Part shown: in pieces, positions 21,801 to 60,255 of the stretch
How positions within the stretch are numbered: the stretch's first letter is position 1
How the letters are laid out: each line of letters begins with the position of its first letter
Source of the DNA: Limnomonas spitsbergensis
Taxonomy: Eukaryota > Chlorophyta > Chlorophyceae > Chlamydomonadales
Length of the DNA stretch: 64,000 bases
Reading direction: 5' to 3'
NCBI GenBank assembly: GCA_037349105.1
Contig: JAYJMM010000066.1
Location: forward strand, 1-64,000
Position numbers and translations under genes: made by a program
Notes under the pieces: generated by a model
Databases searched by the model: none
What the model saw: the letters and a program-made list of their open reading frames with translations, nothing else
Told to the model about the DNA's origin: nothing

Positions 21801-24800
21801 TGCTCCTAGCCCCTCACCCAGGCAGCCTGCTCCTAGCCCCTCACCCGTGCAGCCTGCTCCTAGCCACTCACCCAGGTAGCCTGCTCCTAGCCCTTCACCC
21901 AGACAGCCTGCTCCTAGCCCCTCACCCAGGTAGCCTGCTCCTAGCCCCTCACCCAGGTAGCCTGCTCCTAGCCCCTCACCCAGGCAGCCTGCTCCTAGCC
22001 CCTCACCCAGGCAGCCTGCTCCTAGCCCCTCACCCAGGTAGCCTGCTCCTAGCCCCTCACCCAGGTAGCCTGCTCCTAGCCCCTCACCCAGGCAGCCTGC
22101 TCCTAGCCCCTCACCCAGGCAGCCTGCTCCTAGCCCCTCACCCAGGCAGCCTGCTCCTAGCCCCTCACCCAGATAGCCTGCTCCTAGCCCGTCACCCAGG
22201 TAGCCTGCTCCTAACCCCTCACCCATGTAGCCTGCTCCTAGCCCCTCACCCAGGCAGCCTGCTCCTAGCCCCTCACCCAGGCAGCCTGCTCCTAGCCCCT
22301 CACCCAGGTAGCCTGCTCCTAGCCCCTCACCCAGGCAGCCTGCTCCTAGCCCCTCACCCATGCAGCCTGCTCCTAGCCCCTCACCCAGGTAGCCTGCTCA
22401 TAGCCCCTCACCCAGGCAGCCTGCTCCTAGCCCCTCACCCAGGTAGCCTGCTCCTAGCCCCTCACCCAGGCAGCCTGCTCCTAGCCCTTCACCCAGACAG
22501 CCTGCTCCTAGCCCCTCACCCAGGTAGCCTGCTCCTAGCCCCTCACCCAGGTAGCCTGCTCCTAGCCCCTCACCCAGGTAGCCTGCTCCTAGCCCCTCAC
22601 CCAGGCAGCCTGCTCCTAGCTTCTCACCCATGCAGCCTGCTCCTAGCCCCTCACCCAGGCAGCCTGCTACAAACTCCTCAACCAGGCAGCCTGCTACTAG
22701 CCCCTCACCCAGGTAGCCTGCTCCTAGCCCCTTACCCAGGTAGCCTGCTCCTCGCCCCTCACCCAGGTAGCCTGCTCCTAGCCCCTCACCCAGGTAGCCT
22801 GCTCCTAGCCCCTCACCCAAGCAGCCTGCTCCTAGCCCCTCACCCAGGCAGCATGCTCCTAGCCCCTCACCCAGGTAGCCTGCTCCTAGCCCCTCACCCA
22901 GGTAGCCTGCTCCTAGCCCCTCACCTAGGCAACCTGCTCCTAGCCCCTCACCCAGGCAGCATGCTCCTAGCCCCTCACCCAGGTAGCCTGCTCCTCGCCC
23001 CTCACCCAGGCAGCCTGCTCCTCGCCCCTCACCCAGGTAGCCTGCTCCTAGCCCCTCACCCAGGTAGCCTGCTCGTAGCCCCTCACCCAGGCAGCCTGCT
23101 CCTAGCCCCTCACCCAGGCAGCATGCTCCTAGCCCCTCACCCAGGTAGCCTGCTCCTAGCCCCTCACCCAGGTAGCCTGCTCCTAGCCCCTCACCTAGGC
23201 AACCTGCTCCTAGCCCCTCACCCAGGCAGCCTGCTCCTAGCCCCTCACCCAGGCAGCATGCTCCTAGCCCCTCACCCAGGTAGCCTGCTCCTCGCCCCTC
23301 ACCCATGCAGCCTGCTCCTAGCCCCTCACCCAGGCAGCATGCTCCTAGCCCCTCACCCAGGTAGCCTGCTCCTAGCCCCTCACCCAGGCAGCTTGCTCCT
23401 AGCCCCTCACCCAGGTAGCCTGCTCCTAGCCCCTCACCCAGGTAGCCTGCTCCTCGCCCCTCACCCAGGTAGCCTGCTCCTAGCCCCTCACCCAGGTAGC
23501 CTGCTCCTAGCCCCTCACCCAGGTAGCCTGCTCCTCGCCCCTCACCCAGGTAGCCTGCTCCTAGCCCCTCACCCAGGTAGCCTGCTCCTAGCCCCTCACC
23601 CAGGCAGCCTGCTCCTAGCCCCTCACCCAGGCAGCATGCTCCTAGCCCCTCACCCAGGTAGCCTGCTCCTAGCCCCTCACCCAGGCAGCTTGCTCCTAGC
23701 CCCTCACGCAGGTAGCCTGCTCCTAGCCCCTCACCCAGGCAGCCTGCTCCTAGCCCCTCACCCAGGCAGCCTGCTCCTAGCCCCTCACCCAGATAGCCTG
23801 CTCCTAACCCCTCACCCAGGTAGCCTGCTCCTAGCCCCTCACCCAGGCAGTCTGCTCCTAGCCCCTCACCCAGGCAGCCTGCTCCTAGCCCCTCACCCAG
23901 ATAGCCTGCTCCTGGCCCCTCACCCAGGTAGCCTGCTCCGAGCCCCTCACCCAGGCAGCCTGCTCCTAACCCCTCACCCATGCAGCCTGCTCCTAGCCCC
24001 TCACCCAGGTAGCCTGCTCCTAGCCCCTCACCCATGCAGCCTGCTCCTAGCTTCTCACCCATGCAGCCTGCTCCTAGCCCCTCACCCAGGCAGCCTGCTC
24101 CTAGCCCCTCACCCAGGCAGCCTGCTCCTAGCCCCTCACCCAGGCAGCTTGCTCCTAGCCCCTCACCCAGGCAGCCTGCTCCTAGCCCCTCACCCAGGCA
24201 GCCTGCTCCTAGCCCCTCACCTAGGCAACCTGCTCCTAGCCCCTCACCCAGGTAGCCTGCTCCTAGCCCCTCACCCAGGCAGCCTGCTCCTAGCCCCTCA
24301 CCCAGGCAGCCTGCTCCTAGCCCCTCACCCAGGCAGCCTGCTCCTAGCCCCTCACCCAGGCAGCCTGCTCCTAGCCCCTCACCCAGGCAGCCTGCTCCTA
24401 GCCCCTCACCCAGGCAGCCTGCTCCTAGCCCCTCACCCAGGCAGCCTGCTCCTAGCCCCTCACCCAGGTAGCCTGCTCCTAGCCCCTCACCCAGGTAGCC
24501 TGCTCCTAGCCCCTCACCCAGGCAGTCTGCTCCTAGCCCCTCACCCATGCAGCCTGCTCCTAGCCCCTCACCCAGGCAGCCTGCTCCTAGCCCCTCACCC
24601 AGATAGCCTGCTCCTAGCCCGTCACCCAGGTAGCCTGCTCCTAACCCCTCACCCATGTAGCCTGCTCCTAGCCCCTCACCCAGGCAGCCTGCTCCTAGCC
24701 CCTCACCCAGGCAGCCTGCTCCTAGCCCCTCACCCAGGTAGCCTGCTCCGAGCCCCTCACCCATGCAGCCTGCTCCTAGCCCCTCACCCATGCAGCCTGC

Positions 24801-27800
24801 TCCTAGCCCCTCACCCAGGTAGCCTGCTCATAGCCCCTCACCCAGGCAGCCTGCTACTAGCCCCTCACCCAGGTAGCCTGCTCCTAGCCCCTCACCCAGG
24901 CAGCCTGCTCCTAGCCCTTCACCCAGACAGCCTGCTCCTAGCCCCTCACCCAGGTAGCCTGCTCCTAGCCCCTCACCCAGGTAGCCTGCTCCTAGCCCCT
25001 CACCCAGGTAGCCTGCTCCTAGCCCCTCACCCAGGCAGCCTGCTCCTAGCCCCTCACCCAGGCAGCCTGCTTGTCCCCCTCACCCAGGTCGCCTGCTTGT
25101 CCCCCTCACCCAGGTAGCCTGCTCCGAGCCCCTCACCCAGGCAGCCTGCTGCTAGCCCCTCACCCAGGCAGCCTGCTCCTAGCCCCTCACCCAGGTAGCC
25201 TGCTCCTAGCCCCTCACCCAGGTAGCCTGCTCCTAGCCCCTCACCCAGGCAGCCTACTCCTAGCCCCTCACCCAGGCAGCCTGCTCCTAGCCCCTCACCC
25301 AGATAGCCTGCTCCTAGCCCCTCACCCAGGCAGCCTGCTCCTAGCCCCTCACCCAGGCAGCCTGCTCCTAGCCCCTCACCCAGGTAGCCTGCTTGTCCCC
25401 CTCACCCATGTAGCCTGCTTGTCCCCCTCACCCAGGTAGCCTGCTTGTCCCCCTCACCCAGGTCGCCTGCTTGTCCCCCTCACCTAGGTAGCCTGCTTGT
25501 CCCCCTCACCCAGGTAGCCTGCTTGTCCCCCTCACCCATGCAGCCTGCTCCTAGCCCCTCACCCATGTAGCCTGCTTGTCCCCCTCACCCAGGTAGCCTG
25601 CTTGTCCCCGTCACCCAGGTCGCCTGCTTGTCCCCCTCACCCAGGTAGCCTGCTTGTCCCCCACACCCAGGTTGCCTGCTTGTCCCCCTCACCCATGCAG
25701 CCTGCTCCTAGCCCCTCACCTGCTCCTTGCCCCTCACCCAGGTCGCCTGCTTGTCCCCCTCACCCAGGTAGCCTGCTTGTCCCCCTCACCCAGGTAGCCT
25801 GCTCCTAGCCCCTCACCCAGGTAGCCTGCTCCTAGCCCCTCACCCAGGCAGCCTGCTCCTAGCCCCTCACCCAGGCAGCATGCTCCTAGCCCCTCACCCA
25901 GGTAGCCTGCTCCTAGCCCCTCACCCAGGCAGCTTGCTCCTAGCCCCTCACGCAGGTAGCCTGCTCCTAGCCCCTTACCCAGGTAGCCTGCTCCTCGCCC
26001 CTCACCCAGGTAGCCTGCTCCGAGCCCCTCACCCAGGCAGCCTGCTCCTAGCCCCTCACCCAGGTAGCCTGCTCCTAGCCCCTCACCCAGGCAGCCTGCT
26101 CCTAGCTTCTCACCCATGCAGCCTGCTCCTAGCCCCTCACCCAGGCAGCCTGCTACAAACTCCTCAACCAGGCAGCCTGCTACTAGCCCCTCACCCAGGT
26201 AGCCTGCTCCTAGCCCCTTACCCAGGTAGCCTGCTCCTCGCCCCTCACCCAGGTAGCCTGCTCCTAGCCCCTCACCCAGGTAGCCTGCTCCTAGCCCCTC
26301 ACCCAAGCAGCCTGCTCCTAGCCCCTCACCCAGGCAGCATGCTCCTAGCCCCTCACCCAGGTAGCCTGCTCCTAGCCCCTCACCCAGGTAGCCTGCTCCT
26401 AGCCCCTCACCTAGGCAACCTGCTCCTAGCCCCTCACCCAGGCAGCATGCTCCTAGCCCCTCACCCAGGTAGCCTGCTCCTCGCCCCTCACCCAGGCAGC
26501 CTGCTCCTCGCCCCTCACCCAGGTAGCCTGCTCCTAGCCCCTCACCCAGGTAGCCTGCTCGTAGCCCCTCACCCAGGCAGCCTGCTCCTAGCCCCTCACC
26601 CAGGCAGCATGCTCCTAGCCCCTCACCCAGGTAGCCTGCTCCTAGCCCCTCACCCAGGTAGCCTGCTCCTAGCCCCTCACCTAGGCAACCTGCTCCTAGC
26701 CCCTCACCCAGGCAGCCTGCTCCTAGCCCCTCACCCAGGCAGCATGCTCCTAGCCCCTCACCCAGGTAGCCTGCTCCTCGCCCCTCACCCAGGCAGCCTG
26801 CTCCTAGCCCCTCACCCAGGCAGCATGCTCCTAGCCCCTCACCCAGGTAGCCTGCTCCTAGCCCCTCACCCAGGCAGCCTGCTCCTAGCCCCTCACCCAG
26901 GCAGCCTACTCCTAGCCCCTCACCCAGGCAGCCTGCTCCTAGCCCCTCACCCAGATAGCCTGCTCCTAGCCCCTCACCCAGGCAGCCTGCTCCTAGCCCC
27001 TCACCCAGGCAGCCTGCTCCTAGCCCCTCACCCAGGTAGCCTGCTTGTCCCCCTCACCCATGTAGCCTGCTTGTCCCCCTCACCCAGGTAGCCTGCTTGT
27101 CCCCCTCACCCAGGTCGCCTGCTTGTCCCCCTCACCTAGGTAGCCTGCTTGTCCCCCTCACCCAGGTAGCCTGCTTGTCCCCCTCACCCATGCAGCCTGC
27201 TCCTAGCCCCTCACCCATGTAGCCTGCTTGTCCCCCTCACCCAGGTAGCCTGCTTGTCCCCGTCACCCAGGTCGCCTGCTTGTCCCCCTCACCCAGGTAG
27301 CCTGCTTGTCCCCCACACCCAGGTTGCCTGCTTGTCCCCCTCACCCATGCAGCCTGCTCCTAGCCCCTCACCTGCTCCTTGCCCCTCACCCAGGTCGCCT
27401 GCTTGTCCCCCTCACCCAGGTAGCCTGCTTGTCCCCCTCACCCAGGTAGCCTGCTCCTAGCCCCTCACCCAGGTAGCCTGCTCCTAGCCCCTCACCCAGG
27501 CAGCCTGCTCCTAGCCCCTCACCCAGGCAGCATGCTCCTAGCCCCTCACCCAGGTAGCCTGCTCCTAGCCCCTCACCCAGGCAGCTTGCTCCTAGCCCCT
27601 CACGCAGGTAGCCTGCTCCTAGCCCCTTACCCAGGTAGCCTGCTCCTCGCCCCTCACCCAGGTAGCCTGCTCCGAGCCCCTCACCCAGGCAGCCTGCTCC
27701 TAGCCCCTCACCCAGGTAGCCTGCTCCTAGCCCCTCACCCAGGCAGCCTGCTCCTAGCTTCTCACCCATGCAGCCTGCTCCTAGCCCCTCACCCAGGCAG

Positions 27801-30800
27801 CCTGCTACAAACTCCTCAACCAGGCAGCCTGCTACTAGCCCCTCACCCAGGTAGCCTGCTCCTAGCCCCTTACCCAGGTAGCCTGCTCCTCGCCCCTCAC
27901 CCAGGTAGCCTGCTCCTAGCCCCTCACCCAGGTAGCCTGCTCCTAGCCCCTCACCCAAGCAGCCTGCTCCTAGCCCCTCACCCAGGCAGCATGCTCCTAG
28001 CCCCTCACCCAGGTAGCCTGCTCCTAGCCCCTCACCCAGGTAGCCTGCTCCTAGCCCCTCACCTAGGCAACCTGCTCCTAGCCCCTCACCCAGGCAGCAT
28101 GCTCCTAGCCCCTCACCCAGGTAGCCTGCTCCTCGCCCCTCACCCAGGCAGCCTGCTCCTCGCCCCTCACCCAGGTAGCCTGCTCCTAGCCCCTCACCCA
28201 GGTAGCCTGCTCCTAGCCCCTCACCCAGGCAGCCTGCTCCTAGCCCCTCACCCAGGCAGCATGCTCCTAGCCCCTCACCCAGGTAGCCTGCTCCTAGCCC
28301 CTCACCCAGGTAGCCTGCTCCTAGCCCCTCACCCAGGCAACCTGCTCCTAGCCCCTCACCCAGGCAGCCTGCTCCTAGCCCCTCACCCAGGCAGCATGCT
28401 CCTAGCCCCTCACCCAGGTAGCCTGCTCCTCGCCCCTCACCCAGGCAGCCTGCTCCTAGCCCCTCACCCAGGCAGCCTGCTCCTAGCCCCTCACCCAGGT
28501 AGCCTGCTCCTAGCCCCTCACCCAGGCAGCTTGCTCCTAGCCCCTCACGCAGGTAGCCTGCTCCTAGCCCCTTACCCAGGTAGCCTGCTCCTCGCCCCTC
28601 ACCCAGGTAGCCTGCTCCTAGCCCCTCACCCAGGTAGCCTGCTCCTAGCCCCTCACCCAGGTAGCCTGCTCCTCGCCCCTCACCCAGGTAGCCTGCTCCT
28701 AGCCCCTCACCCAGGTAGCCTGCTCCTAGCCCCTCACCCAGGCAGCCTGCTCCTAGCCCCTCACCCAGGCAGCATGCTCCTAGCCCCTCACCCAGGTAGC
28801 CTGCTCCTAGCCCCTCACCCAGGCAGCTTGCTCCTAGCCCCTCACGCAGGTAGCCTGCTCCTAGCCCCTCACCCAGGCAGCCTGCTCCTAGCCCCTCACC
28901 CAGGCAGCCTGCTCCTAGCCCCTCACCCAGATAGCCTGCTCCTAACCCCTCACCCAGGTAGCCTGCTCCTAGCCCCTCACCCAGGCAGCCTGCTCCTAGC
29001 CCCTCACCCAGGCAGCCTGCTCCTAGCCCCTCACCCAGATAGCCTGCTCCTGGCCCCTCACCCAGGTAGCCTGCTCCGAGCCCCTCACCCAGGCAGCCTG
29101 CTCCTAACCCCTCACCCATGCAGCCTGCTCCTAGCCCCTCACCCAGGTAGCCTGCTCCTAGCCCCTCACCCATGCAGCCTGCTCCTAGCTTCTCACCCAT
29201 GCAGCCTGCTCCTAGCCCCTCACCCAGGCAGCCTGCTCCTAGCCCCTCACCCAGGCAGCCTGCTCCTAGCCCCTCACCCAGGCAGCTTGCTCCTAGCCCC
29301 TCACCCAGGCAGCCTGCTCCTAGCCCCTCACCCAGGCAGCCTGCTCCTAGCCCCTCACCCAGGCAACCTGCTCCTAGCCCCTCACCCAGGTAGCCTGCTC
29401 CTAGCCCCTCACCCAGGCAGCCTGCTCCTAGCCCCTCACCCAGGCAGCATGCTCCTAGCCCCTCACCCAGGCAGCCTGCTCCTAGCCCCTCACCCAGGCA
29501 GCTTGCTCCTAGCCCCTCACCCAGGTAGCCTGCTCCTAGCCCCTCACCCAGGCAGCCTGCTCCTAGCCCCTCACCCAGGCAGCCTGCTCCTAGCCCCTCA
29601 CCCAGGTAGCCTGCTCCTAGCCCCTCACCCAGGTAGCCTGCTCCTAGCCCCTCACCCAGGCAGTCTGCTCCTAGCCCCTCACCCATGCAGCCTGCTCCTA
29701 GCCCCTCACCCAGGCAGCCTGCTCCTAGCCCCTCACCCAGATAGCCTGCTCCTAGCCCGTCACCCAGGTAGCCTGCTCCTAACCCCTCACCCATGTAGCC
29801 TGCTCCTAGCCCCTCACCCAGGCAGCCTGCTCCTAGCCCCTCACCCAGGCAGCCTGCTCCTAGCCCCTCACCCAGGTAGCCTGCTCCGAGCCCCTCACCC
29901 ATGCAGCTTGCTCCTAGCCCCTCACCCATGCAGCCTGCTCCTAGCCCCTCACCCAGGTAGCCTGCTCATAGCCCCTCACCCAGGCAGCCTGCTACTAGCC
30001 CCTCACCCAGGTAGCCTGCTCCTAGCCCCTCACCCAGGCAGCCTGCTCCTAGCCCTTCACCCAGACAGCCTGCTCCTAGCCCCTCACCCAGGTAGCCTGC
30101 TCCTAGCCCCTCACCCAGGTAGCCTGCTCCTAGCCCCTCACCCAGGTAGCCTGCTCCTAGCCCCTCACCCAGGCAGCCTGCTCCTAGCCCCTCACCCAGG
30201 CAGCCTGCTTGTCCCCCTCACCCAGGTCGCCTGCTTGTCCCCCTCACCCAGGTAGCCTGCTCCGAGCCCCTCACCCAGGCAGCCTGCTGCTAGCCCCTCA
30301 CCCAGGCAGCCTGCTCCTAGCCCCTCACCCAGGTAGCCTGCTCCTAGCCCCTCACCCAGGTAGCCTGCTCCTAGCCCCTCACCCAGGCAGCCTACTCCTA
30401 GCCCCTCACCCAGGCAGCCTGCTCCTAGCCCCTCACCCAGATAGCCTGCTCCTAGCCCCTCACCCAGGCAGCCTGCTCCTAGCCCCTCACCCAGGCAGCC
30501 TGCTCCTAGCCCCTCACCCAGGTAGCCTGCTTGTCCCCCTCACCCATGTAGCCTGCTTGTCCCCCTCACCCAGGTAGCCTGCTTGTCCCCCTCACCCAGG
30601 TCGCCTGCTTGTCCCCCTCACCTAGGTAGCCTGCTTGTCCCCCTCACCCAGGTAGCCTGCTTGTCCCCCTCACCCATGCAGCCTGCTCCTAGCCCCTCAC
30701 CCATGTAGCCTGCTTGTCCCCCTCACCCAGGTAGCCTGCTTGTCCCCGTCACCCAGGTCGCCTGCTTGTCCCCCTCACCCAGGTAGCCTGCTTGTCCCCC

Positions 30801-33800
30801 ACACCCAGGTTGCCTGCTTGTCCCCCTCACCCATGCAGCCTGCTCCTAGCCCCTCACCTGCTCCTTGCCCCTCACCCAGGTCGCCTGCTTGTCCCCCTCA
30901 CCCAGGTAGCCTGCTTGTCCCCCTCACCCAGGTAGCCTGCTCCTAGCCCCTCACCCAGGTAGCCTGCTCCTAGCCCCTCACCCAGGTAGCCTGCTCCTAG
31001 CCCCTCACCCAGGTAGCCTGCTCCTAGCCCCTCACCCGGGTAGCCTGCTCCTAGCCCCTCACCCAGGTAGCCTGCTCCTAGCCCCTCACCCATGCAGCCT
31101 GCTCCTAGCCCCTCACCCAGGCAGCCTGCTTGTCCCCCAGAAATATGACAAGGATCTTGCGCCGACCAGTGGGGGCAGACGCGCCAGGGGGGGTAGGCGC
31201 GAGCAGGCAGTGCCCACCTGCCAGCGGGGCTGCAACAGAGCCAGGTGCATTCCCAATAGAGTCAGACACAGCAGCTGATCCTTCCTGTCCGAACACCCTG
31301 GGGACAGCGCCAAGGGAGACTGAGGGGCCAACAGACATTGCCACAGCCACTGCCGCTGCTGCTGCAACATCTGCCCCAGCCATTGCCACCGCAGCTGCAC
31401 CATCAGCAGCTTCTGCTTCAATTGCACCTTGTACCACTAAGACAGATGTTCCTGCTGCTGCTGCTGCTGTGAGGGACAGTGGTGCTGCTGACGTTGTTGC
31501 AGTTGCTGTTGTTGTTGATGGGCTGCTGTTGCCTCCGGCCGGTGTTGCAGCTGCAGGTCCCTCCCTGCCTGTGAGGGCTGTAGCCAGTAGCAGACAGGGG
31601 GGCAGGAACAGCTGACGCTCACGGGACTTGAGGAGCTGGACCTGAGGGGGAAGGAGGGCATCAGAGCAACGAGCAAAGAGTTAAGGAGGGGTGCAGAATG
31701 CAGAGCGAGTGGGGAAGCGAGGGTTGAATAATAGGGCTGAGGGCCAACGACGAAGGATGGAAAAAGAGGGACTGTGAGAAAAGGGCGAGGAGGAGAAGCG
31801 ATGACTTGGCTAAAAGTAAAAGCGAATAAAGCTGGGGGAAAATGGTGATAGAGGAGGAAAGACCCAAACTCGTCTCAACCCCTTTTGGGAAACGCGAGCA
31901 TGAACGGTTGTGTTGTATGTTGTGTGTGCAATGGATGTTTTCCTGGCCATGAGATTCACACATGGAGAACGCAACCATGCCCCCCATCAGCCACAGCAAC
32001 AGTTGCTGGTATTTGCACCCACTGGGGGAAAATAAACCCGGGGGACACCCTGCAGAGGTTGTGCCGCGGTCATGGAGCCAAGCCTGCTGGTTCAGAGCTG
32101 TCATAAGGTCAAACCAACAGTAACTGAGGAGAAGGCTAGGGCCTGTTCTGCCCTTGGCTTGTGCTGAATATCCGCAGAGCCTGAAAGCCTTCCCAGTGCA
32201 GGGGCAGCCGAGGCTCATACCCCAGCAGACTGACAGCTCCCCTCCCTGGCCTTAAGGGGACAAGGAGAGGCGAGGGAGCAGCAATGGTGGGACTGTCCAG
32301 GCCTTATCTGCGCCAATAGCCCGCTCCTGTTCCCAGGGGGGACCTAGGCAAAGGAAAGCTGTCATAAAAGCACGAAGTTCAGAGAGCAGCCCCGCCTTTC
32401 GGCAAGTGCCAGGAAGAGGCCGAGAGGGGCCCGATGAGGTTGAGGATGTTACAAGGGCAAGGAGGGATGGGGGAGGGTCAACGCTTACATCTCCTAACCT
32501 GCAGGCTCATCGGCTTATTCCCACAGGCAGGCTCGTCGGCTTAGTCCCACTCTTGTGCCAGATCCTCCCCCATGTTCCTAACATGAAGGGACATTGCACA
32601 CGCCCTACCCACCAAGCTAAGGGCAGAATCCCCGACGCAAAAAAAACCTCCCCCACCTCACCTGCTGTTGCGTGATGACCACACCCGGAGGCAGGTCCCA
32701 GGGGTCCAGCGCCTCTGCTGGCCACCAAGGGCCCACATCACGGCTGGGGTCCTTGGCCCAGACCATGTGGCCCAGCTTGTCTGCATCCTGGGCCATGCTC
32801 ACCAGACGCACCACAGCTGTGTGGAGGCGCATGGGGTGCATGGAGGTGCATGGAGGTGGATAAGGGTGCATGGGGGGTAAATTTGGTGGCATGGGAGTGA
32901 ATGGAGAAGCATGGAGGTGCATGGAGGTGCATGGAGTTGCATCGAGGTGCATGGAGGTGCATCGAGGTGCATGGAGGTGCATGGAGGTGCATGGAGGTGA
33001 ATGGAGGTGTTGCGTGGGGGCGCTGTTAGCTCCTCCTCCGCCTCCCACACCATGGACCTGAAGTTTAAGATGGCATTCTCCGCGGCCTTTGAGGAACACA
33101 TTATCACATTCACAACCTCAGGCCTGATGTGGGCACCCCCCCCCGCATACTAAGAAGAGGGAGAGCTGCGTGCAGTGTGGACCTTTCCTTTTATTCCTAC
33201 CCTCACCTTCCACCTGGGGGTCCAGATTTGCTCCACACTCGCGCATGCGGCGCAAGGTGGGCTCCAAGTTCCATCCCTGCAAGAGGGTAACGGAGGATTT
33301 TAAGGAGTCCCGGTGTACAGGGCTTGAAGGGGCTGGCGGCTCCATCTCCAGACCAGAGTGTTAGACATCAGGTTGGTATAAACGATGACTGAGTCGCAAA
33401 CATAGCAATATGGTGTGTGTTAGGCAATGAGAGTGACACCCGATATCACCTGTCCTCTCACCTGCCCCTCACCCTCACACATCTTCCTCAACCTCTCCCC
33501 TGTTCCTCACCTCTCACATCACCCCTAGCATATCACCTGCCCCTAACATATCACCCCTTCCCCCCAAACACCCACCTGCTCCCTTAGTCGCATTAAGAAG
33601 ACAGTGAGTGAGGCGGCTGAGGGTGCGCGTCCAACCTGCGAGAAACAAACAATTGCAGGGTTCAGGGTTCAGGGTTCAGGGTTCAGGGTTCAGGGTTCAG
33701 GGTTCAGGGTTAGGGTTCAGGGTTCAGGGTTCAGGGGAAACATACAAAACTTGGTACCAAACATGAGCATATCAGCTGTGACATAAGTCAGGCATCCATT

Positions 33801-36800
33801 CAATATCCTTTTTTAAAGGGCCAGGCAACATGTAAGTGGAGGCAAAGGTTTGGAGCAGATCAGTTTTTTTATTAAGATGCTAAGGTCTGCTTCACGGCAC
33901 AGAGTGACGGATTGAGCGACAGATTGAACGACGGATTGAGCGACGGATTGAATGACGGAGTGACCTTGCATTTATACCAGATGTAACAATGGAAGATCTG
34001 GAGCTGAATGGCAGGGGTGGATGGGCTGAGGGGGGCTGAGGGGGGCTGAGGGGGGCTGAGGGCTTGACGGTCTTGAGCAGGGTTGCAGGGTTGAAAGGGC
34101 CCGAGGGCACGCACCTTTTTCACCACATCACCCAGCGGCCGAAAAGGATGCTTCTCAGGCACCTCGGATACATCCTCCACCCCCCACCTGCACATGGACA
34201 CGTGGAACAACGAAAGTCGTCCTCCAGCAATCCCTGCAGATCTCAAGTGACAGCGGCCATCACAAAGGATTCAATGACTAGAATTCAACTGCCAACAGTA
34301 ACAAGTGAGAAATCAGAATTCAGCGACAACGTCCATCAGGATAAGGTTGGAGCGGCGTCCACCCTGAGCCCTCCACCAACCTATCAGGCTATCACTGGGT
34401 CGATGGGGAGCGAACCATGACCTGTTGCCCCAACATCAGGGCTGGCTACTACAGACCCCCCCGTTGCTGCGTCAAAGCTGCATGCCTCCCCAGTAGAGCC
34501 TAAATCCCAGGTCTCCCCCCCCCTCTGACCTGCCCTGCCCTCGGAGGAACCACGCAGCTCGTGGCCACCCTTGCCCTGTGGACCTGGCTCCGTTACCTCC
34601 GTACCGCGTCAGCAGTGAGGCCTCCTGCATGCACAGCAACCAGGGGCCAATCCACAGGGCAATTAAGGACAGGGGCAAAGAGAGGTCGCTGACAAGGATA
34701 CATAACAGAGATGCTTTGGCGGTGGCATTGGCGTGGAGGGATGAGAGGAGTTGGAATGAGGGTGGGGTGAAGGAAAAGGTTGGAACCTTAGAGTCAGGCT
34801 TGGGTTGGGGCTTGGGTTGAAATACTTGAGGGTTTAGGGTCTCATGGAACCTGTCCCCTCATGCACCTCGGCTGTTGCATCGTCCCCGCCCACTGCCTCC
34901 TCGGCCGAGCCCCCACTGGACTCTGTCCCCGTCGCTGCTGCTGTGGACCCATCAGCTGCAGCTGCTGCCCCCTCTTGTGCGCCGCCACCGCTTGTTATTG
35001 CGTGTTGTGGCAGCAGCATGTGTGTATCCTGGTGCTCCAGGCTGAGACACTCCAGGTCCATACCCCCTGACGGCAGCCCCGCGTCGTCCACAGCAGCAAC
35101 ACCCTGGCAGGAGGGGGGGCAGAGGAGAGGAGTAAGGGATGGCAAGGAGGGGGGGGGGCAGAGGAGAGGAGTAAGGATAAGGAGGGACATGAAGGAAGCT
35201 TAAACGAAATATTAAAATCCTCCCCTTCTTTTTGACGGCTAAGATTCCGCCATCAAATCTACGATTTTTATTTTCCAAAAATCTTTTTAGCTTCGCTTCC
35301 CCCTGATAAGATTCCAAGATTCCAAGATTTTGGGGTTTAGGGTTTAGGGTCGAGGGCAGAGGGTTGAGAGTTTGGGTTTTAGGATATCCGGCATACAATG
35401 ATGAGGTTTGAACATCATGTCCATGGCTCGTCCGCATGTATCCAGGAGATTAGGGGCAGCCGGTCCACACTGGCGGGAGAAGCTGCAGGTGGCGTGCATA
35501 GTAGCTGTTACACATCAGCTATTTTCAGCTACGTCCTAGCCTGCGGCCCTAATGGCTGATGCAGGATGGCCTGCTGCTTGGGCTAAGCCTTAGGCCGCGC
35601 ACAGGGTGGGCCCATAGCAGTCCCATATCGGCCCTGCCGTTGCAGCCCGGCGGCCCCCAATCAAGCCTTCGTGGCCTGGTGCGCTCGTCATATGAGCTTT
35701 GAACAACATTCCTCCATCCTCACCCTATCCAAACAATGGGTAGTTATGCCTGTGCGTGTGGTCCCATGTGTGCAGGGCATGTACCCAGGCATGCACCTGG
35801 CTGCAATCCACCCAGTCAGGATGAACAGAGGGGGGCTGAGGGGCAGGGACCATGAGACAACATGGGGCAGGCCACTGGGCAGAGGGGGGCTGAGGGGCAG
35901 GGACCATGAGACAACATGGGGCAGGCCACTGGGCAGAGGGGGGCTGAGGGGCAGGGACCATGAGACAACATGGGGCAGGCCACTAAGCAGAGGGGGGCTG
36001 AGGGGCAGGGACCATGAGACAACATGGGGCAGGCCACTGGGCAGAGGGGGGCTGAGGGGCAGGGACCATGAGACAACATGGGGCAGGCCACTGAGCAGAG
36101 GGGGGCTGAGGGGCAGGGACCATGAGACAACATGGGGCAGGCCACTGAGCAGAGGGGGGCTGAGGGACAGGGACCATGAGACTACATGGGGCAGGCCACT
36201 GGGCAGAGGGGGGCTGAGGGGCAGGGACCATGAGACAACATGGGGCAGGCCACTGAGCAGAGGGGGGCTGAGGGACAGGGACCATGAGACTACATGGGGC
36301 AGGCCACTGGGCAGAGGGGGGCTGAGGGGCAGGGACCATGAGACATCATGGGGCAGGCCACTGGGCAGAGGGGGGCTGAGGGGCAGGGACCATGAGACAA
36401 CATGGGGCAGGACACTGGGCAGAGGGGGGCTGAGGGGCAGGGACCATGAGACAACATGGGACAGGCCACTGAGCAGAGGGGGGCTGAGGGGCAGGGAGCA
36501 TGAGACATCATGGGGCAGGCCACTGGGCAGAGGGGGGCTGAGGGGCAGGGACCATGAGACAACATGGGGCAGGTCACTGGGCAGAGGGGGGCTGAGGGGC
36601 AGGGACCATGAGACAACATGGGACAGGCCACTGAGCAGAGGGGGGCTGAGGGGCAGGGAGCATGAGACAACATGGGGCAGGCCACTGGGCAGAGGGGGGC
36701 TGAGGGGCAGGGACCATGAGACAACATGGGGCAGGACACTGAGCCGCCACCACTGGGCAGGTGAGGAGTCTAGGGACCCAACCTGGACTAGAGGGGGGCC

Positions 36801-39800
36801 CAGGCACCAGTCTAAGCGAGCCTCGGGAAATGAAGCGGACTTGAAGCTGAGGTGTGCCTGAAATGTAGCTGAAGCACCCTAATCTGTAGCTGAAACCCCT
36901 TTAACCACCCACCTCTCCGTCCTCGTCACCGCTGTCCTCAGCCTCATCAATGCCGTCCATACCTGCAGGCCAGGAGGGACATAATCAAAGGCCTCAAACT
37001 TAAATCACCAAACCGGACCTGCCTGTTATAAAATGGAACGGTGGCGCTTGGAATAATCCAGGAAGAAGGGGGATCTCTGTAGATTGAGGTTCAGGGCAAC
37101 GACCTGGTCCAAGGAAATAAAATAAACGCTATGCCGCTGTGTGAGACCAATAAAGCGGTCCTCAAAAACTCCACATGAATCGATCTGCCGCCACAATCCG
37201 GCCCCTTCTCTCCTGTTTTCATTTGTTCTCCCTTTCTTTCTCCTTATCTGCTGCACCACTCCGCCCTCTGCTCTCCTTTCCTTGGTTCGCCCCTTCTCCT
37301 GATTCTTACCTGGCAGCAGCACCGGCTGCCTCCTCTGTGTGGCATGGGGCCTCATGACCGTGCCGACCACTTGATGCTTTTCAGCCAGCCGGCGCCACTC
37401 CTCAACACTGTACACAGACAATAGATCAGGCAGGTGGGAGAGGGACTCAGGTTGGAGGACTCTGGTCTAGGGTTGATAAGTGGACGTGGAAAGGCAGGAT
37501 AGGAAGCCTTGACACCATCAGGCCATGTGTCCACACACCTCCTTTCACACCCACCTGACCATGCCATGTTTCCACACACCTCCTTTCACACCCACCTGAC
37601 CATGCCATGTTTCCACACACCTCCTTTCACACCCACCTGACCATGCCATGTGTCCACACACCTCCTTTCACACCCACCTAACCATGCCATGTTTCCACAC
37701 ACCTCCTTTCACACCCACCTGACCATGCCATGTGTCCACACACCTCCTTTCACACCCACCTGACCATGCCATGTGTCCACACACCTCCTTTCACACCCAC
37801 CTGACCATGCCATGTGTCCACACACCTCCTTTCACACCCACCTGACCATGCCATGTGTCCACACACCTCCTTTCACACCCACCTGACCATGCCATGTTTC
37901 CACACACCTCCTTTCACACCCACCTGACCATGCCATGTTTCCACACACCTCCTTTCACACCCACCTGACCATGCCATGTTTCCACACACCTCCTTTCACA
38001 CCCACCTGACCATGCTATGTGTCCACACACCTCCTTTCACACCCACCTGACCATGCCATGTGTCCACACACCTCCTTTCACACCCACCTGACCATGCCAT
38101 GTGTCCACACACCTCCTTTCACACCCACCTGACCATGCCATGTTTCCACACACCTCCTTTCACACCCACCTGACCATGCCATGTTTCCACACACCTCCTT
38201 TCACACCCACCTGACCATGCTATGTGTCCACACACCTCCTTTCACACCCACCTGACCATGCCATGTTTCCCGAACAGGCTCCGCGGCATCAAGCGGTCAC
38301 AGCCGGTCCCGATGTACTTGTGCAGGTAGGGCTCCATCAGCCGACGCCCCAGCCAGTGGGCAACCTGGGAAGACCAGCAAGAGAGGAGAATATGGGGGCG
38401 GTGTCAACATGGCAGCTTTCAGCGTTCAAGGATCAGCGCTGAGGTTGCAAAATTTGAAATCCAGGCCCCATGTTTCTGGCCTCCAACTCCAAGTTGTGCG
38501 CATCTTCTCCGAGCACCCAAGACCCATGGTCCATGTTGTGCTGAATCACAACCTGCTCAGTGTCAACCCTGTATTTAACACGCGAGGCGGCAATGACATT
38601 GAACCCTTCAACCTTATCGCCTTCCCCACACACACTCCCCGCCCTCCTGGGTGAAGCAGCCATTGGCCATGTACAACCCTTTCAGGATGCGGCTGTTCCA
38701 GTATCAGCTGAGGCTCATGCTTCATTCAATACCCTCTTGGCTCTCAAGAATCCTGGTCCCTTCATGGGCCCAATCGCAGGCGTGTTTCATTTAGCAGATG
38801 TCCACCAGTGCCATGCAGGCGTGAGGGGCATACCTGCACAGTGACTGCGTTCCCTATGAGGGCGAACCGGGCACGCTCACGCACATCCGCGTCAGAGTCA
38901 CGCACAGACTTGCCCCTGAGAGAGTGAAGGTTTGAGATGCAAGAGGGTAGGGGGTAGGTGCAAGGGTGGAAGGTTGAGGGTGAGGGTCAAGGTGCAAGGG
39001 TTGAGGGTTGAGGGTTAAGACCACATGTGGACTTCTCTGCAGGTTGTTGAAGGATGGTGAATGAAGGAACATCACAGCAGGCTGACCCTGGGTGTGACGT
39101 ATTCAATTTTGAGCACCTGCTGTGTTGCCTGTCTTGACCCGATCAGAATGTCCGTGAGAGGAACAAGGCCTTGTGGAAATGTGACAGCAATGCAGACAGA
39201 TCCCTGCAGGTCCATCTCAAAGGCAATGCCCCGCTCTCGCGGCTGCCCCCCCCTGGACTGCTTATTGCCTGACCTGTGTTGGTGTACCCCTGGCCCCATG
39301 ACTGGCCAGGCCGCCTCAGTGTGACCCTCTGGCAGACCCTGGCATGACAGGTGGGAGGGAGGGAGGGAGGGAGGGAGGGAGGGAGGGAGGGAGGGAGGGG
39401 TATTCTGGTCGTGCCATGTGGCTGGGTAGGGCAGGCGGGCAGGGCAGGCGGGCAGGGCAGGCGGGAGTGACCTTGTCATGATAGACAGGCAGACAGGCAG
39501 ACAGGTAGGCAGGAAGGAAGGTGGACACTGGGCAGGCAGGCGGGTGGTGGGTGAGTGGGCAGGCAAACAGGCCAGGCATATGCAGGGTCCCTGAACTCAT
39601 CACATTGAATCCACAAAACATACTGCATTACCCGTCCGTGGTTAGGGGGATCAAACTACGCTGCCAAAAATGTAATTGAGAAGGTACCTGAGTCCCTGTA
39701 TACACTCCACAAGGTTTGCAGTCCCCAACCCTAACAACTAAATTCCTCCCCCCCTCCTCTGTTGCCTCTCCCCACACCTGCAACCTCTCTGCGTCCTCAA

Positions 39801-42800
39801 TACGTAGGAGGCCTAGCTGCCCCGTCCTCAGCACCAGGCACATGCGGTCGTTGTTGGTGGTGAAGGTGGGGACCAGGTCAATCCCGGGAGCGCTCCTGAC
39901 AGGGGGGGCAGGGACACAGAGGGGGGGGGGGGCTTGTTCAAAAGGGGACAGAAACGGATATGATCATGTTTTGTCTGGATGAGAGAGCTGAGAGGTATCC
40001 AGGATTAGCAGCTCAGATCCAGGGCCGCAGCTGCTCGGTTACCATGCTGTTAGAAGAACCTTGACTTATCCAAACCCTTCTTAAATCAGGATATCCAGCA
40101 GCTATTTGTTTGCCACTCCAACACATAGTTCCTCAAGGTATGCAGCCTTAAGTTGACATCCAGGGATTCACAACCATCAACCGCCCATCCTTGACACACA
40201 TGATTATAATTGTTAAGACAGTGTTTTCTGAAATCCAATATCTAGATCAAGATCCAGTACCGGGCATTTCCCAGATCCAGTGCCAGCGAGCAGTCCTCCA
40301 GGGAGATGTCCTCCAAGTCGGTGTTGTGCAGGTCCCGGTTGCTCAGGCTCTTGACAGGGGGCTCGTAACACTGGCAGCAAAAAGGAAAGAAGAGGATGGT
40401 GATTCATGACCTGAGGCTTGGGAGGTTCAAGCGGTGGCTCTTGGCGGGAGGCTGGTACCACAAGCAGAAGCAGATATCATATCGGTTCCAGGTATGTGCA
40501 GATTCTGACCCCCCTCCCAGATTTGCCTCGATCCATCCCCCCTGAACCCACCTCATAGCAGGAGTCTCCCGGGAGGCATCCATCCCCCCTGAACCCACCT
40601 CATAGCAGGAGTCTCCCGGGAGGCATCCATCCCCCCTGAACCCACCTCATAGCAGGGGTCTCCCAGGAGGCATCCATCCCCCCTGAACCGACCTCATAGC
40701 AGGAGTCTCCCGGGAGGCATCCATCCCCCCTGAACCCACCTCATAGCAGGAGTCTCCCGGGAGGCATCCATCCCCCCTGAACCCACCTCATAGCAGGAGT
40801 CTCCCGGGAGGCATCCATCCCCCCTGAACCCACCTCGTAGCAGGAGTCTCCCGGGAGGCAGCCATCCCCCCTGAACCCACCTCATAGCAGGGGTCTCCCG
40901 GGAGGCATCCATCCCCCCTGAACCCACCTCATAGCAGGAGTCTCCCGGGAGGCATCCATCCCCCCTGAACCCACCTCATAGCAGGAGTCTCCCGGGAGGC
41001 ATCCATCCCCCCTGAACCCACCTCAAAGCAGGAGTCTCCCGGGAGGCATCCATCCCCCCTGAACCCACCTCATAGCAGGAGTCTCGCGGGACGCATCCAT
41101 CCCCCCTGAACCCACCTCATAGCAGGAGTCTCCCGGGAGGCATCCATCCACCCTGAACCCACCTCATAGCAGGGGTCTCCCGGGAGGCAGCCATCCCCCC
41201 TGAACCCACCTCATAGCAGGAGTCTCCCGGGAGGCATCCATCCCCCCTGAACCCACCTCATAGCAGGAGTCTCCCGGGAGGCATCCATCCCCCCTGAACC
41301 CACCTCATAGCAGGAGTCTCCCGGGAGGCAGCCATCCCCCCTGAACCCACCTCATAGCAGGGGTCTCCCGGGAGGCATCCATCCCCCCTGAACCCACCTC
41401 ATAGCAGGAGTCTCCCGGGAGGCATCCATCCCCCCTGAACCCACCTCATAGCAGGAGTCTCCCGGGAGGCATCCATCCCCCCTGAACCCACCTCATAGCA
41501 GGAGTCTCCCGGGAGGCATCCATCCCCCTGAACCCACCTCATAGCAGGAGTCTCCCGGGAGGCATCCATCCCCCCTGAACCCACCTCATAGCAGGAGTCT
41601 CCCGGGAGGCATCCATCCCCCCTGAACCCACCTCATAGCAGGAGTCTCCCGGGAGGCATCCATCCCCCCTGAACCCACCTCATAGAAGGGGTCTCCCGGG
41701 AGGCATCCATCCCCCCTGAACCCACCTCATAGCAGGAGTCTCCCGGGAGGCATCCATCCCCCCTGAATCCACCTCATAGCAGGAGTCTCCCGGGAGGCAT
41801 CCATCCCCCCTGAACCCACCTCATAGCAGGGGTCTCGCGGGAGGCATCCATCCCCCCTGAACCCACCTCATAGCAGGAGTCTCCCGGGAGGCATCCATCC
41901 ACCCTGAACCCACCTCATAGCAGGGGTCTCCCGGGAGGCATCCATCCCCCCTGAACCCACCTCATAGCAGGAGTCTCCCGGGAGGCATCCATCCCCCCTG
42001 AACCCACCTCATAGCAGGAGTCTCCCGGGAGGCATCCATCCCCCCTGAACCCACCTCATAGCAGGAGTCTCCCGGGAGGCATCCATCCCCCCTGAACCCA
42101 CCTCATAGCAGGAGTCTCCCGGGAGGCATCCATCCCCCCTGAACCCACCTCATAGCAGGAGTCTCCCGGGAGGCATCCATCCCCCCTGAACCCACCTCAT
42201 AGCAGGAGTCTCCCGGGAGGCATCCATCCCCCCTGAACCCACCTCATAGCAGGAGTCTCCTGGGAGGCAGCCATCCCCCCTGAACCCACCTCATAGCAGG
42301 AGTCTCCCGGGAGGCATCCATCCCCCCTGAACCCACCTCATAGCAGGAGTCTCCCGGGAGGCATCCATCCCCCCTGAACCCACCTCATAGCAGGAGTCTC
42401 CCTGGAGGCATCCATCCCCCCTGAACCCACCTCATAGCAGGGGTCTCCCGGGAGGCATCCATCCCCCCTGAACCCACCTCATAGCAGGAGTCTCCCGGGA
42501 GGCATCCATCCCCCCTGAATCCACCTCATAGCAGGAGTCTCCCGGGAGGCATCCATCCCCCCTGAACCCACCTCATAGCAGGGGTCTCGCGGGAGGCATC
42601 CATCCCCCCTGAACCCACCTCATAGCAGGAGTCTCCCGGGAGGCATCCATCCACCCTGAACCCACCTCATAGCAGGGGTCTCCCGGGAGGCATCCATCCC
42701 CCCTGAACCCACCTCATAGCAGGAGTCTCCCGGGAGGCATCCATCCCCCCTGAACCCACCTCATAGCAGGAGTCTCCCGGGAGGCATCCATCCCCCCTGA

Positions 42801-45800
42801 ACCCACCTCATAGCAGGAGTCTCCCGGGAGGCATCCATCCCCCCTGAACCCACCTCATAGCAGGAGTCTCCCGGGAGGCATCCATCCCCCCTGAACCCAC
42901 CTCATAGCAGGAGTCTCCCGGGAGGCATCCATCCCCCCTGAACCCACCTCATAGCAGGAGTCTCCCGGGAGGCATCCATCCCCCCTGAACCCACCTCATA
43001 GCAGGAGTCTCCCGGGAGGCATCCATCCCCCCTGAACCCACCTCATAGCAGGAGTCTCCCGGGAGGCATCCATCCCCCCTGAACCCACCTCATAGCAGGA
43101 GTCTCCCGGGAGGCATCCATCCCCCCTGAACCCACCTCATAGCAGGAGTCTCCCGGGAGGCATCCATCCCCCCTGAACCCACCTCATAGCAGGAGTCTCC
43201 TGGGAGGCAGCCATCCCCCCTGAACCCACCTCATAGCAGGAGTCTCCCGGGAGGCATCCATCCCCCCTGAACCCACCTCATAGCAGGAGTCTCCTGGGAG
43301 GCATCCATCCTTCCTGAACCCACCTCATAGCAGGAGTCTCCCGGGAGGCATCCATCCCCCCTGAACCCACCTCATAGCAGGAGTCTCCCGGGAGGCATCA
43401 ATCCCCCCTGAACCCACATCATAGCAGGAGTCTCCCGGGAGGCATCCATCCCCCCTGAACCCACCTCATAGCAGGAGTCTCCCGGGAGGCATCCATCCCC
43501 CCTGAACCCACCTCATAGCAGGAGTCTCCCGGGAGGCATCCATCCCCCCTGAACCCACCTCATAGCAGGAGTCTCCCGGGAGGCATCCATCCCCCCTGAA
43601 CCCACCTCATAGCAGGGGTCTCCCGGGAGGCATCCATCCCCCCTGAACCCACCTCATAGCAGGAGTCTCCCGGGAGGCATCCATCCCCCCTGAACCCACC
43701 TCATAGCAGGAGTCTCCTGGGAGGCATCCATCCCCCCTGAACCCACCTCATAGCAGGAGTCTCCCGGGAGGCATCCATCCCCCCTGAACCCACCTCATAG
43801 CAGGGGTCTCGCGGGAGGCATCCATCCCCCCTGAACCCACCTCATAGCAGGGGTCTCCCGGGAGGCATCCAGGGAGGGGCTTCGTGCATGAACCTAGGCA
43901 GCGCTGACGGCCCTGGGGGGACAGCAGTTCATCGGAACACAGCAAGCTATAGTGACGCCCGGACGGATGGATGGACGATGAAAGATCCAGTGAGGGCACG
44001 TGCATGTGGACATGCTCAGGTATGTGTGGGTCTGGCAGGGCCCCCTCAGGGAAGATTGCCTGGATGATATGAGGGAATTGTCCCGGCAGGGCCACGGCCT
44101 CTCTGTTGTTGAGTTACACTCCAGTCCCTCCAGGGCCACCCACACATCCACCCCAAAGCCTGCTTCTAAAACAGTCAGACGGATTGATGAAGTTCAGAGG
44201 ATGACAGAAATGTTATCAAGTGCCAGTGCCAGTTGGTTTGAGAGTAAAGAAAAGCACCGGCCGTCCTCCCCTCACCTGGGCCAGGAGCACATCCCTGGCA
44301 TCCCCGTGCAAGGAGGCAAGCACAAACACGCGCTTGCGGCGGTTGGGGACCCCAAACCCTGCAGAGGGCACAGGGTCAGGTTGGCAGTTGGTGGGATGGG
44401 CACTTCGCAGATGGGCAGTTTGGACAGTTGGACTGAGGTCAGGAAGGCGCTTGGGCATGATGGGAGCAGGAGGCCAGGGGGGCAGATGGACAGAGAGTTA
44501 GGATGGCAGTTGGGCGGTTGGGCCCTTGTATAGATGGTCTAAGACTTAGGGAGGAAGAGGAGTAAGAGGGTGTCTGGGCAATTGAACAAAGGTTAGCTTC
44601 GACAGATGGGTAGCTGGGTAGAGGGGCTGAGGGGCTGAGGGGCTGTGTGGGGCAGGTGGACATACAGGACCTTCGTTACCCAATGTCGCATACAGTTAGG
44701 GCATGATGGCCTGAAACAAAAATCAAGATTTGATATGAGATCCCCCTCCCCCAGATCTGTCCACCTGCTGACACCACGACCCTGTGCGCCCAGCTCTTAT
44801 ACCCCAGCGCCTCCAGATTATCCGTGATCTGCTGGATGGCGGGGGGCTGGCCTTGGCTGCGGTCAAGCAACGCCTCCACCTGCGTTGGGGGGCGTCGGGA
44901 ACAGAACTGGGCCCATGTTTCAGAGGAACCATACAAAAGTGTGTGAGCAACAATCATCATGTGGAAACAGGACGGGATGGGGACAGCATGGGGGGCTAAC
45001 AGGCTGCACTCTGCAACTCTGCAGCAGGTCCACAGGCTGCTTGGATTTTGTACCTTGGATTGCGCCAGGATTGAGCCTAGGACCTGGATGGCGCATCGGC
45101 AGACCCCATCGAGCATTACAAACCAGGAGGTCTTACCAGCCTATGCAACCATCAGTCAGGTCACAGACCTAATGCCCCAATAACGACACTTGCCTCACCC
45201 ATGACATCCCTGCGCGCTTATCAGGCTTCGAAATATTCAGCTGCCTGACTCTATTAATGACAACTTGATCACCGGTTGTTGTCTCACAGGCAAAGAAGCG
45301 TCGGCTGGTGCAAACGCACCAACAGAGGCCCGAGGAACTGGGATCCGGTAGATCTGAGGAACCCTGCAGATCTGAGGAACCATGCAGATCTAAGAAACCT
45401 CCTCATCAAACATAAAATCTCAACACCCCTAAGGTCTGGTAGCCCTGAAGATCTGACAAACCTGAAGTCAAACCAAATCCTGAGGATAAAAGTACTCTTC
45501 TTATCGGATTCCCCTGCAGATCTGCCTGCCCCCCTCCCCCCTGCCCCCCTCCCCCCTGCCCCCCTTCCCCCTGCCCCCCTGCCCCCCTCCCCCCTGCCCC
45601 CCTGCCCCCCTCCCCCCTGCCCCCCTCCCCCCTGCCCCCCCCCGCCCCTGCCCCCCCCCGCCCCTGCCCCCGCCCCCCTGCCCCCCGCCCCCCTGCCCCC
45701 CTCCCCCCTGCCCTTACATTTTCCAGCAGGACCCAGGGGATTGCCCGGTCATCTCGTTTGGCCTGCTCCAACAGCCGGAACACGTGTCGCACTAGGCCTG

Positions 45801-60033: not shown

Positions 60034-60255
60034 CAAGCACAGTACAAATTGGGAATTGATTGAATCAGGCAGAAGCAGGGTATGAGTGGGTAAGTGATTA
60101 CTGAGGAAATGCTGTCAGGCCCTGCTGACCAGGCTGCTGACAGGCCCTGCTGACAGGAACCCAGTGGGAAAAAAAGTGAACTGGGCCTGCCCAACTTGCT
60201 GTTTGTATGCATGCTCTGTATCATCCCCAGCTCCTATGCCATTTTCTGGTTCACA

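What the first reader, a model, noticed from the sequence alone, without database searches (positions are those of the whole stretch)
37523..43871. Three independent arrays in one gene copy an exon end plus 5' donor
The same layout occurs three times: 27-bp (donor at 31117), 41-bp (donor at 38252) and 47-bp (donor at about 43857). In each, the first unit is the real exon/intron junction, the unit includes 17-30 bases of exon, and the donor GTGAGG or GTGGGT is preserved in nearly every copy. Coincidence is unlikely. A mechanism biased to 5' splice sites, such as replication slippage or R-loop-associated breakage at G-rich GTGGG donors, or selection to keep donor copies, could make a general class of splice-donor-anchored minisatellites. 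I know of no standard name for this pattern.
Basis: partly seen in the sequence, partly recalled or inferred. Interest (0 to 1): 0.9.

Follow-up and report, generated by a model that had tools for sequence, protein, structure and literature searches.

The report
Splice-junction minisatellites in an alga
In a green alga's DNA methyltransferase gene, three introns are filled by repeat arrays whose unit is a copy of the end of the preceding exon plus the splice site; similar copies of exon ends, on both sides of introns, turned up often in other genes of this genome, and the pattern is already known from amphioxus under the name "mirages".

Summary
Three arrays (47, 41, 27 bp) in a cytosine-5 DNA methyltransferase/PWWP gene each start inside an exon and repeat exon end plus 5' splice site. 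Frame and homologs support all three donors; the 47-bp donor is at 43841/43840, not 43857. The 27-bp array fills 18.7 of 18.9 kb of its intron.

A donor-specific class is not established. At kinase exons of the same genome, fetched without regard to arrays, exon-end copies lie in the adjacent intron at 9 of 43 donors and 6 of 52 acceptors (10 and 7 with two cases added by eye); the difference is not significant, though it leans to donors. Array units show no clear donor-motif enrichment. The genome is saturated with arrays (41% of 11 arbitrary 10-kb pieces).

[quoted passage not shown] Best explanation: frequent tandem duplication at near-random positions, with selection removing exon-internal ones, then ordinary minisatellite growth. 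Of the first eight donors in each array only the first keeps the frame. A mild excess of junction-spanning duplications (16 of 25 against 10.9 expected) leaves a junction bias open. New are host, scale and frequency.

The parts
43841..43912 (-). exon E4 of the methyltransferase gene (GRQRCLGSCTKPLPGCLPGDPCYE); donor GTGGGT from 43840
   Evidence: frame and splice sites; homolog alignment
40531..43871 (-). 47-bp array, about 71 units; first unit holds the last 31 bp of E4 plus the donor; fills most of the 3470-bp intron 43840-40371
40261..40370 (-). exon E5 (CYEPPVKS...)
38252..38364 (-). exon E9 (VAHWLGRRL...FGKHGMV); donor GTGGGTG from 38251
37522..38270 (-). 41-bp array, about 18 units; first unit holds the last 19 bp of E9 plus the donor
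   Evidence: the genome search returned matches only here
37310..37407 (-). exon E10
31117..31641 (-). PWWP-domain exon ending ...RRKILVIFLGDKQAAW (5' edge read from the sequence); donor GTGAGG from 31116
   Evidence: (PWWP below cut-off, 22 against 25.6 bits)
12445..31130 (-). 27-bp array, about 691-696 units, about 99% of an intron of about 18.87 kb (31116-12248)
12196..12247 (-). next exon (EWSDALLDYIRHKEAKTG), read from the sequence and from P0121 (QEWNDALLDY)
35826..36741 (-). 54-bp array in the E11/E12 intron, starting about 170 bp inside the intron: not junction-spanning
45525..45713 (-). 15-bp C/G-run array starting about 5 bp inside the donor of E1, without exon sequence

Best explanation
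These are mirage-type minisatellites: tandem duplications whose first unit happened to straddle an exon-intron boundary and which then grew by the usual copy-number processes. SHOWN: the first unit is the real junction, and of the first eight donors of each array only the first gives an intact frame when joined to the next exon. SHOWN: the sampled genome is very rich in tandem arrays, and junction-spanning duplications occur at both ends of introns in unrelated genes. INFERRED: duplications arise at nearly random places by slippage or unequal exchange; those inside exons are removed by selection; those inside introns or across a junction are neutral as long as the outermost (exon-adjacent) splice site is used. 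So junction-spanning arrays accumulate without a role for the splice site in making them, and the donor is 'preserved' because the whole unit is homogenised.
For: 41% of 11 arbitrarily placed 10-kb pieces is TRF array, 3.8 arrays of 100 bp or more per 10 kb. Kinase exon ends fetched without regard to arrays: junction copies at 9 of 43 donors and 6 of 52 acceptors. Base-level examples: L062 (exon end ...AFLAPEMMKPNTRY in 3 copies with donor), L053, L059, L036; acceptor side L066, L054, L062. No event confined to the exon among 83 ends, which looked at up to 150 bp of exon. Under uniform placement in the flank the expected spanning events are 5.46 of 15 (donor) and 2.34 of 6 (acceptor); observed 7 (8 with L048) and 4. 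An earlier ungapped scan gave 4 of 15 against 5.5 and 3 of 8 against 2.8. In the window gene itself 2 of 11 donors and 0 of 11 acceptors span (the PWWP donor was not in that scan). Using donor 2-8 instead of donor 1 gives a premature stop in 7 of 7 cases for each array. L059 and L064, which look like paralogs by eye, differ: L059 has donor copies, L064 none in about 250 bp but an acceptor-side copy, pointing to separate origins.
Against: Pooled, 16 of 25 duplications span a junction against 10.85 expected (p 0.013; L048 counted by eye, L064 left out). Part may be ascertainment, because the conserved exon half keeps old copies recognisable, but a true junction bias is not excluded. Donor counts exceed acceptor counts in each version of the scan. 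The three window arrays have short units (27-47 bp), for which chance straddling of a donor is less likely than for the 69-190-bp lags in kinases. In the 27-bp array the donor columns vary about 5-fold less than the rest (9.5 against 46.1 non-consensus units per column), though 4 of 27 windows do as well.
Confidence: 0.76

Rival explanations
1. A mutational mechanism targeted to 5' splice sites (for example R-loop or G-rich GTGGG breakage during co-transcriptional splicing) seeds arrays at donors.
For: 3 of the 4 arrays over 500 bp between 12445 and 45713 straddle a donor and none an acceptor. Donor ends lead in each count: TRF arrays within 40 bp of an exon-hit end 5 against 1 (of which 2 truly include the donor), self-alignment 8 against 4 of 50 (one of the 8 wholly intronic), self-BLAST 9/43 against 6/52. 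Junction-spanning excess p 0.013.
Against: Acceptor-side copies exist (L054, L062, L066, L039, L041, L043). Donor against acceptor is not significant (p 0.17-0.28). No clear donor-motif enrichment in 49 array units.
Confidence: 0.11
2. Selection keeps the donor copies, for example as decoy or regulatory sites that make premature-stop isoforms.
For: GT kept in 71/71, 18/18, 685/691 units. Each of donors 2-8 gives a premature stop, as a regulated poison isoform would need.
Against: Other columns are as invariant in two arrays. Degenerate copies in kinase introns have lost the donor in places (third copies of L059 and L036; AG lost in L066 copies).
Confidence: 0.06
3. The arrays are copies of a dispersed intron-making element (introner-like) rather than local duplications.
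For: Introners are known from some green algae (recalled, no call).
Against: Searches with the 47-bp and 41-bp arrays returned matches only in the array or its own flank (29 of 29; 8 of 8), though the tool skips very common words and its counts are lower bounds. Units carry the coding sequence of their own exon. For the 27-bp array the search is uninformative: it reported one 74% match on another contig and not even the array itself.
Confidence: 0.04
4. The exon borders are wrong, or the arrays are coding repeats.
For: No transcript was available. In L017 the 141-bp unit keeps one frame open through about 4 copies, so a coding reading cannot be excluded there.
Against: For the three window arrays the spliced frame and homologs agree at the borders, and reading on meets stops.
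Confidence: 0.03

Closest known systems
'Mirages' in amphioxus (Adh3, globin genes BflGb6 and BflGb9, TnC; similar imperfect ones in PGBD5)
   Same: Minisatellite-like tandem duplications of an intron/exon boundary. Both boundaries can be affected, units 10-160 bp, many copies retain AG/GT signals, described as not disturbing splicing (PMC3087553 section 16 read in full; PMC3902484 one passage read).
   Different: Reported there at single amphioxus loci with few copies (6 and 3 units in the two BflGb6 haplotypes). Here a green alga, up to about 691-696 units and 18.7 kb, and frequent in the kinase sample. Splicing and length polymorphism are untested here.
Tandem repeats concentrated at intron ends in Chlamydomonas and Volvox (PMC3887541, passages read)
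   Same: Green algae; intronic tandem repeats more frequent near intron-exon junctions.
   Different: The abundant intron motifs named there are dinucleotide GT/AC repeats; the passages I read do not describe copies of exon sequence.
Intron gain by tandem duplication, AGGT model (PMC4974935 abstract; PMC2891723 passages)
   Same: Tandem duplication that copies splice signals and exon sequence, in the potato case across a boundary.
   Different: Here the copies lie inside an intron and no new intron is shown.

Membership tests
mirage minisatellites | tandem repeats whose unit spans an exon-intron boundary | tested here: met
   three arrays; kinases
mirage minisatellites | either the 5' or the 3' boundary of an intron can be duplicated | tested here: met
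   donor 9 of 43, acceptor 6 of 52 kinase exon ends; both ends of one exon in L039, L054, L062 and L066. In the window gene only donors (2 of 11 scanned, acceptors 0 of 11)
mirage minisatellites | unit size in the reported range (10-160 bp) | tested here: met
   27, 41, 47 bp in the window; spanning lags 69-190 bp in kinases, the longest above the reported range
mirage minisatellites | regular splicing is not disturbed | not testable with these tools
   no transcripts; of donors 1-8 only the first keeps the frame
mirage minisatellites | copy-number polymorphism between haplotypes | not testable with these tools
   one assembly only
introner-like elements | the same element dispersed in many introns | tested here: not met
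   47-bp and 41-bp arrays returned matches only to themselves (lower-bound searches); 27-bp inconclusive
   10/43 against 6/52, p 0.17; 16 of 25 junction-spanning against 10.85 expected, p 0.013

The most novel reading that the evidence does not exclude
In this algal lineage exon-intron junctions are preferred origins of tandem duplication (coupled to transcription or splicing), so that introns grow mainly from their ends by copying the junction. Mirages would then be a genome-wide engine of intron expansion, producing introns such as the 18.9-kb one here, rather than an amphioxus curiosity.
Probability: 0.2. Interest if true: 0.75.

Novelty: new member of a known kind. Interest (0 to 1): 0.5.

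Why it matters
If the frequency seen in the kinase sample (15 of 95 exon ends, about one in six) holds across the genome, this alga offers a very large set of natural junction duplications of all ages. That makes two questions directly testable: how the spliceosome picks the outermost of many identical sites, and whether introns lengthen, or are gained, by duplication across their own boundaries. It also warns annotators: gene finders in such genomes may see false exon ends inside introns.

Tried and rejected
Unit-level scan for donor motifs: no clear enrichment (the matrix was made from 20 donors of this gene, the array donors included). Ungapped diagonal scan for duplications missed cases with indels and was replaced by self-BLAST. 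TRF alone found only the better-preserved arrays. Of its hits near exon ends, the L024, L039 and L052 arrays start inside the intron and L020's array abuts an acceptor without exon sequence, so these are not junction-spanning; L039 has separate junction copies found. L043's donor assignment (57 bp beyond the profile hit) is uncertain although it counts among the 9. L048 is called intronic by the automatic rule and was added by eye. L064's acceptor-side copy ends inside the exon part, so the rule would class it as exon-only although its second copy lies in the intron; it is not in the 6. L017 looks like a donor-spanning array but may be coding, so it is not counted. Recursive splicing through AG|GT copies (18/18 and 70/71 units in the 41- and 47-bp arrays) was considered: I see no pyrimidine tract before the AG, and the 27-bp array has GG|GT in 655 of 691, so it is not favoured. 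Solved structures: no sequence match.

Kinase sample: 57 of the 140 hits, roughly in E-value order, skipping some with in-frame stops or long open frames but by no strict rule; 83 were not fetched. In one search, 13 donors and 4 acceptors of the first 50 hits were dropped for weak site or short flank. One search printed all 7; I applied the same score limits by hand, dropping one donor (L060) and one acceptor (L065). The expected-span figures depend on flank length (430 bp, about 250 bp) and are not corrected for easier detection of copies with a conserved exon half.

Literature: searches; only 65 and 73 led to mirages. None of these listings showed me a report of junction-copy minisatellites in a green alga, which is no proof of absence. 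Canestro 2002 (the source of the name) is not held and is known to me only through PMC3087553. PMC4039745 was seen as abstract and outline, PMC8226300 as passages; neither carries weight here.

Full report
WHAT IS THERE. The window is the first 64 kb of contig C66 of a 260-Mb, 124-contig genome. The best homologs with organism names are green algae (Haematococcus, Helicosporidium, Coccomyxa, 120 of 476 listed). The species is not known. The minus strand carries a gene for a C5 cytosine DNA methyltransferase (PF00145, E 6.4e-12) followed by a PWWP-like domain (PF00855, E 2.4e-4, below its curated cut-off). Twelve exon pieces join in one frame. The best homolog, P0001 (58% identity, 99% coverage), aligns over the two junctions in the given interval.

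THE THREE ARRAYS. The 47-bp array (40531-43871) starts 31 bp inside exon E4, the 41-bp array (37522-38270) 19 bp inside exon E9, and the 27-bp array (12445-31130) in the PWWP exon. The exon's last 22 bp recur exactly 5 times in the 27-bp array and 23 times with one substitution. The exon-like motif occurs 66 times (the exon's own copy included) and a CTAG-type motif 463 times. The exon is constrained by coding (P0121, 86% identical over a third of the query), so the direction exon-to-array is the natural one (inference). The introns minus array are about 160, 114 and 197 bp (arithmetic). P0121 reads on after the same tryptophan with VSERG..., as if translating a short intron of about 100 nt that begins GTGAGT (inference from the protein alone). 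The 18.9-kb intron may thus have been a short one.

ARE DONORS SPECIALLY KEPT? GT survives in 71 of 71, 18 of 18 and 685 of 691 units. But the arrays are homogenised: 6-column windows at least as conserved as the donor number 20 of 47, 24 of 41 and 4 of 27. In the 27-bp array the donor columns are about 5-fold less variable than the average of the rest. Using any of donors 2 to 8 instead of donor 1 gives a premature stop, whereas donor 1 gives an open frame. The gene therefore needs the outermost donor (inference for donors beyond the eighth).

BACKGROUND. Eleven arbitrarily placed 10-kb pieces of the same genome are 41% tandem array, with 3.8 arrays of 100 bp or more per 10 kb; two pieces are almost wholly array. 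Twenty were asked for; nine named stretches beyond the contig end. Across 49 arrays from these pieces and the window, donor-like sites are about as common as in dinucleotide shuffles; the largest gap is 29 against 23.6 at the score-5 limit. Several arrays in one gene are therefore ordinary here. In the window gene, the same self-BLAST scan finds 2 of 11 donors spanned (E4, E9) and 0 of 11 acceptors; the PWWP donor makes a third.

INDEPENDENT TEST. I took kinase-domain exons (PF00069; 140 hits) and fetched 57 of them with flanks in 47 slices, choosing by coordinates before seeing sequence. TRF at score 36 or more covers 7% of the first 40 slices; it shows 5 arrays within 40 bp of a 3' exon-hit end and 1 near a 5' end, of which two, L048 and L053, truly include exon end and donor. 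Self-alignment gave 8 (3' side) and 4 (5' side) of 50 at score 30 or more, one of the 8 (L024) lying wholly in the intron. Self-BLAST around the predicted splice sites found tandem duplications that span the donor at 7 of 37 ends plus 2 of 6, and that span the acceptor at 4 of 46 plus 2 of 6. By eye L048 (donor) and L064 (acceptor side) also qualify. Base-level reading shows clear cases. In L062 the coding end AFLAPEMMKPNTRY plus donor stands three times. L053, L059 and L036 have three or more copies. L066 and L054 repeat acceptor plus exon start. No duplication confined to the exon was seen in the 83 ends, within at most 150 bp of exon.

NULL MODEL. If duplications of the observed period fall uniformly over intron flank and junction, 5.46 of 15 donor-side and 2.34 of 6 acceptor-side events should span the junction; 8 (with L048) and 4 do, each unremarkable (p 0.11 and 0.12). 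All 25 events pooled give 16 against 10.85, p 0.013. An earlier ungapped version showed no excess (4 of 15 against 5.5; 3 of 8 against 2.8). I do not lean on the pooled value, because a copy with a coding half is easier to recognise when old, and the pooling includes one case added by eye. Donor against acceptor ends, 10/43 against 6/52, gives p 0.17.

WHAT IT IS CALLED. [quoted passage not shown] a second paper, PMC3902484, one passage). The algal arrays meet the structural criteria; splicing neutrality and polymorphism could not be tested. An earlier survey found tandem repeats of Chlamydomonas and Volvox introns concentrated near intron-exon junctions (PMC3887541, passages), which fits.

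MECHANISM. The simplest account is a high rate of tandem duplication filtered by selection. Exon-internal duplications change the protein and are lost; those within introns or across a junction are neutral if the exon-adjacent site is used; then arrays expand. It needs no donor-directed process. Genome searches with the 47- and 41-bp arrays returned matches only in their own introns (lower-bound searches), against a dispersed element; for the 27-bp array this could not be judged.

VERDICT. A correct and sharp observation. The broader claim is half right: this is a recurrent class in this genome, but of splice junctions rather than demonstrably of donors, and of a kind already named. I found no report of its size and frequency in a green alga in the searches listed.

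Noticed in passing
window 1-4675: A 4.7-kb array of CCGATG/CCCGATG-type units at the contig start, with a pure CCGATG stretch of 204 copies at 267-1492.
   Followed up: no
L009-L066 and window: Short telomere-like motifs are strongly over-represented: CCCTAAACCCT 13 against 0.03 expected in the 47 kinase slices, 10 against 0.12 in the 11 arbitrary pieces, 2 against 0.2 in the window; CCCTGAACCCT 12 against 0.35 in the window.
   Followed up: partly
L017:5052-5582: A 141-bp unit repeated about 4 times holding an exon-like KLELEKAMEEARTMMSKLHLATQ followed by GTGGGTG; the frame stays open, so it may be a junction array or a coding repeat.
   Followed up: partly
window 32822-33009: A 10-bp array (TGCACCTCCA on the minus strand) that runs almost up to the apparent acceptor of the PWWP-start exon; L020 shows a similar array abutting an acceptor.
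   Followed up: no
L009 and L019: Two of 11 arbitrary 10-kb pieces are 95-100% tandem array.
   Followed up: no
window 60154-61926: Plus-strand open frames of another gene; they looked to me like a CCDC47-type protein (recalled, not tested by any search).
   Followed up: no
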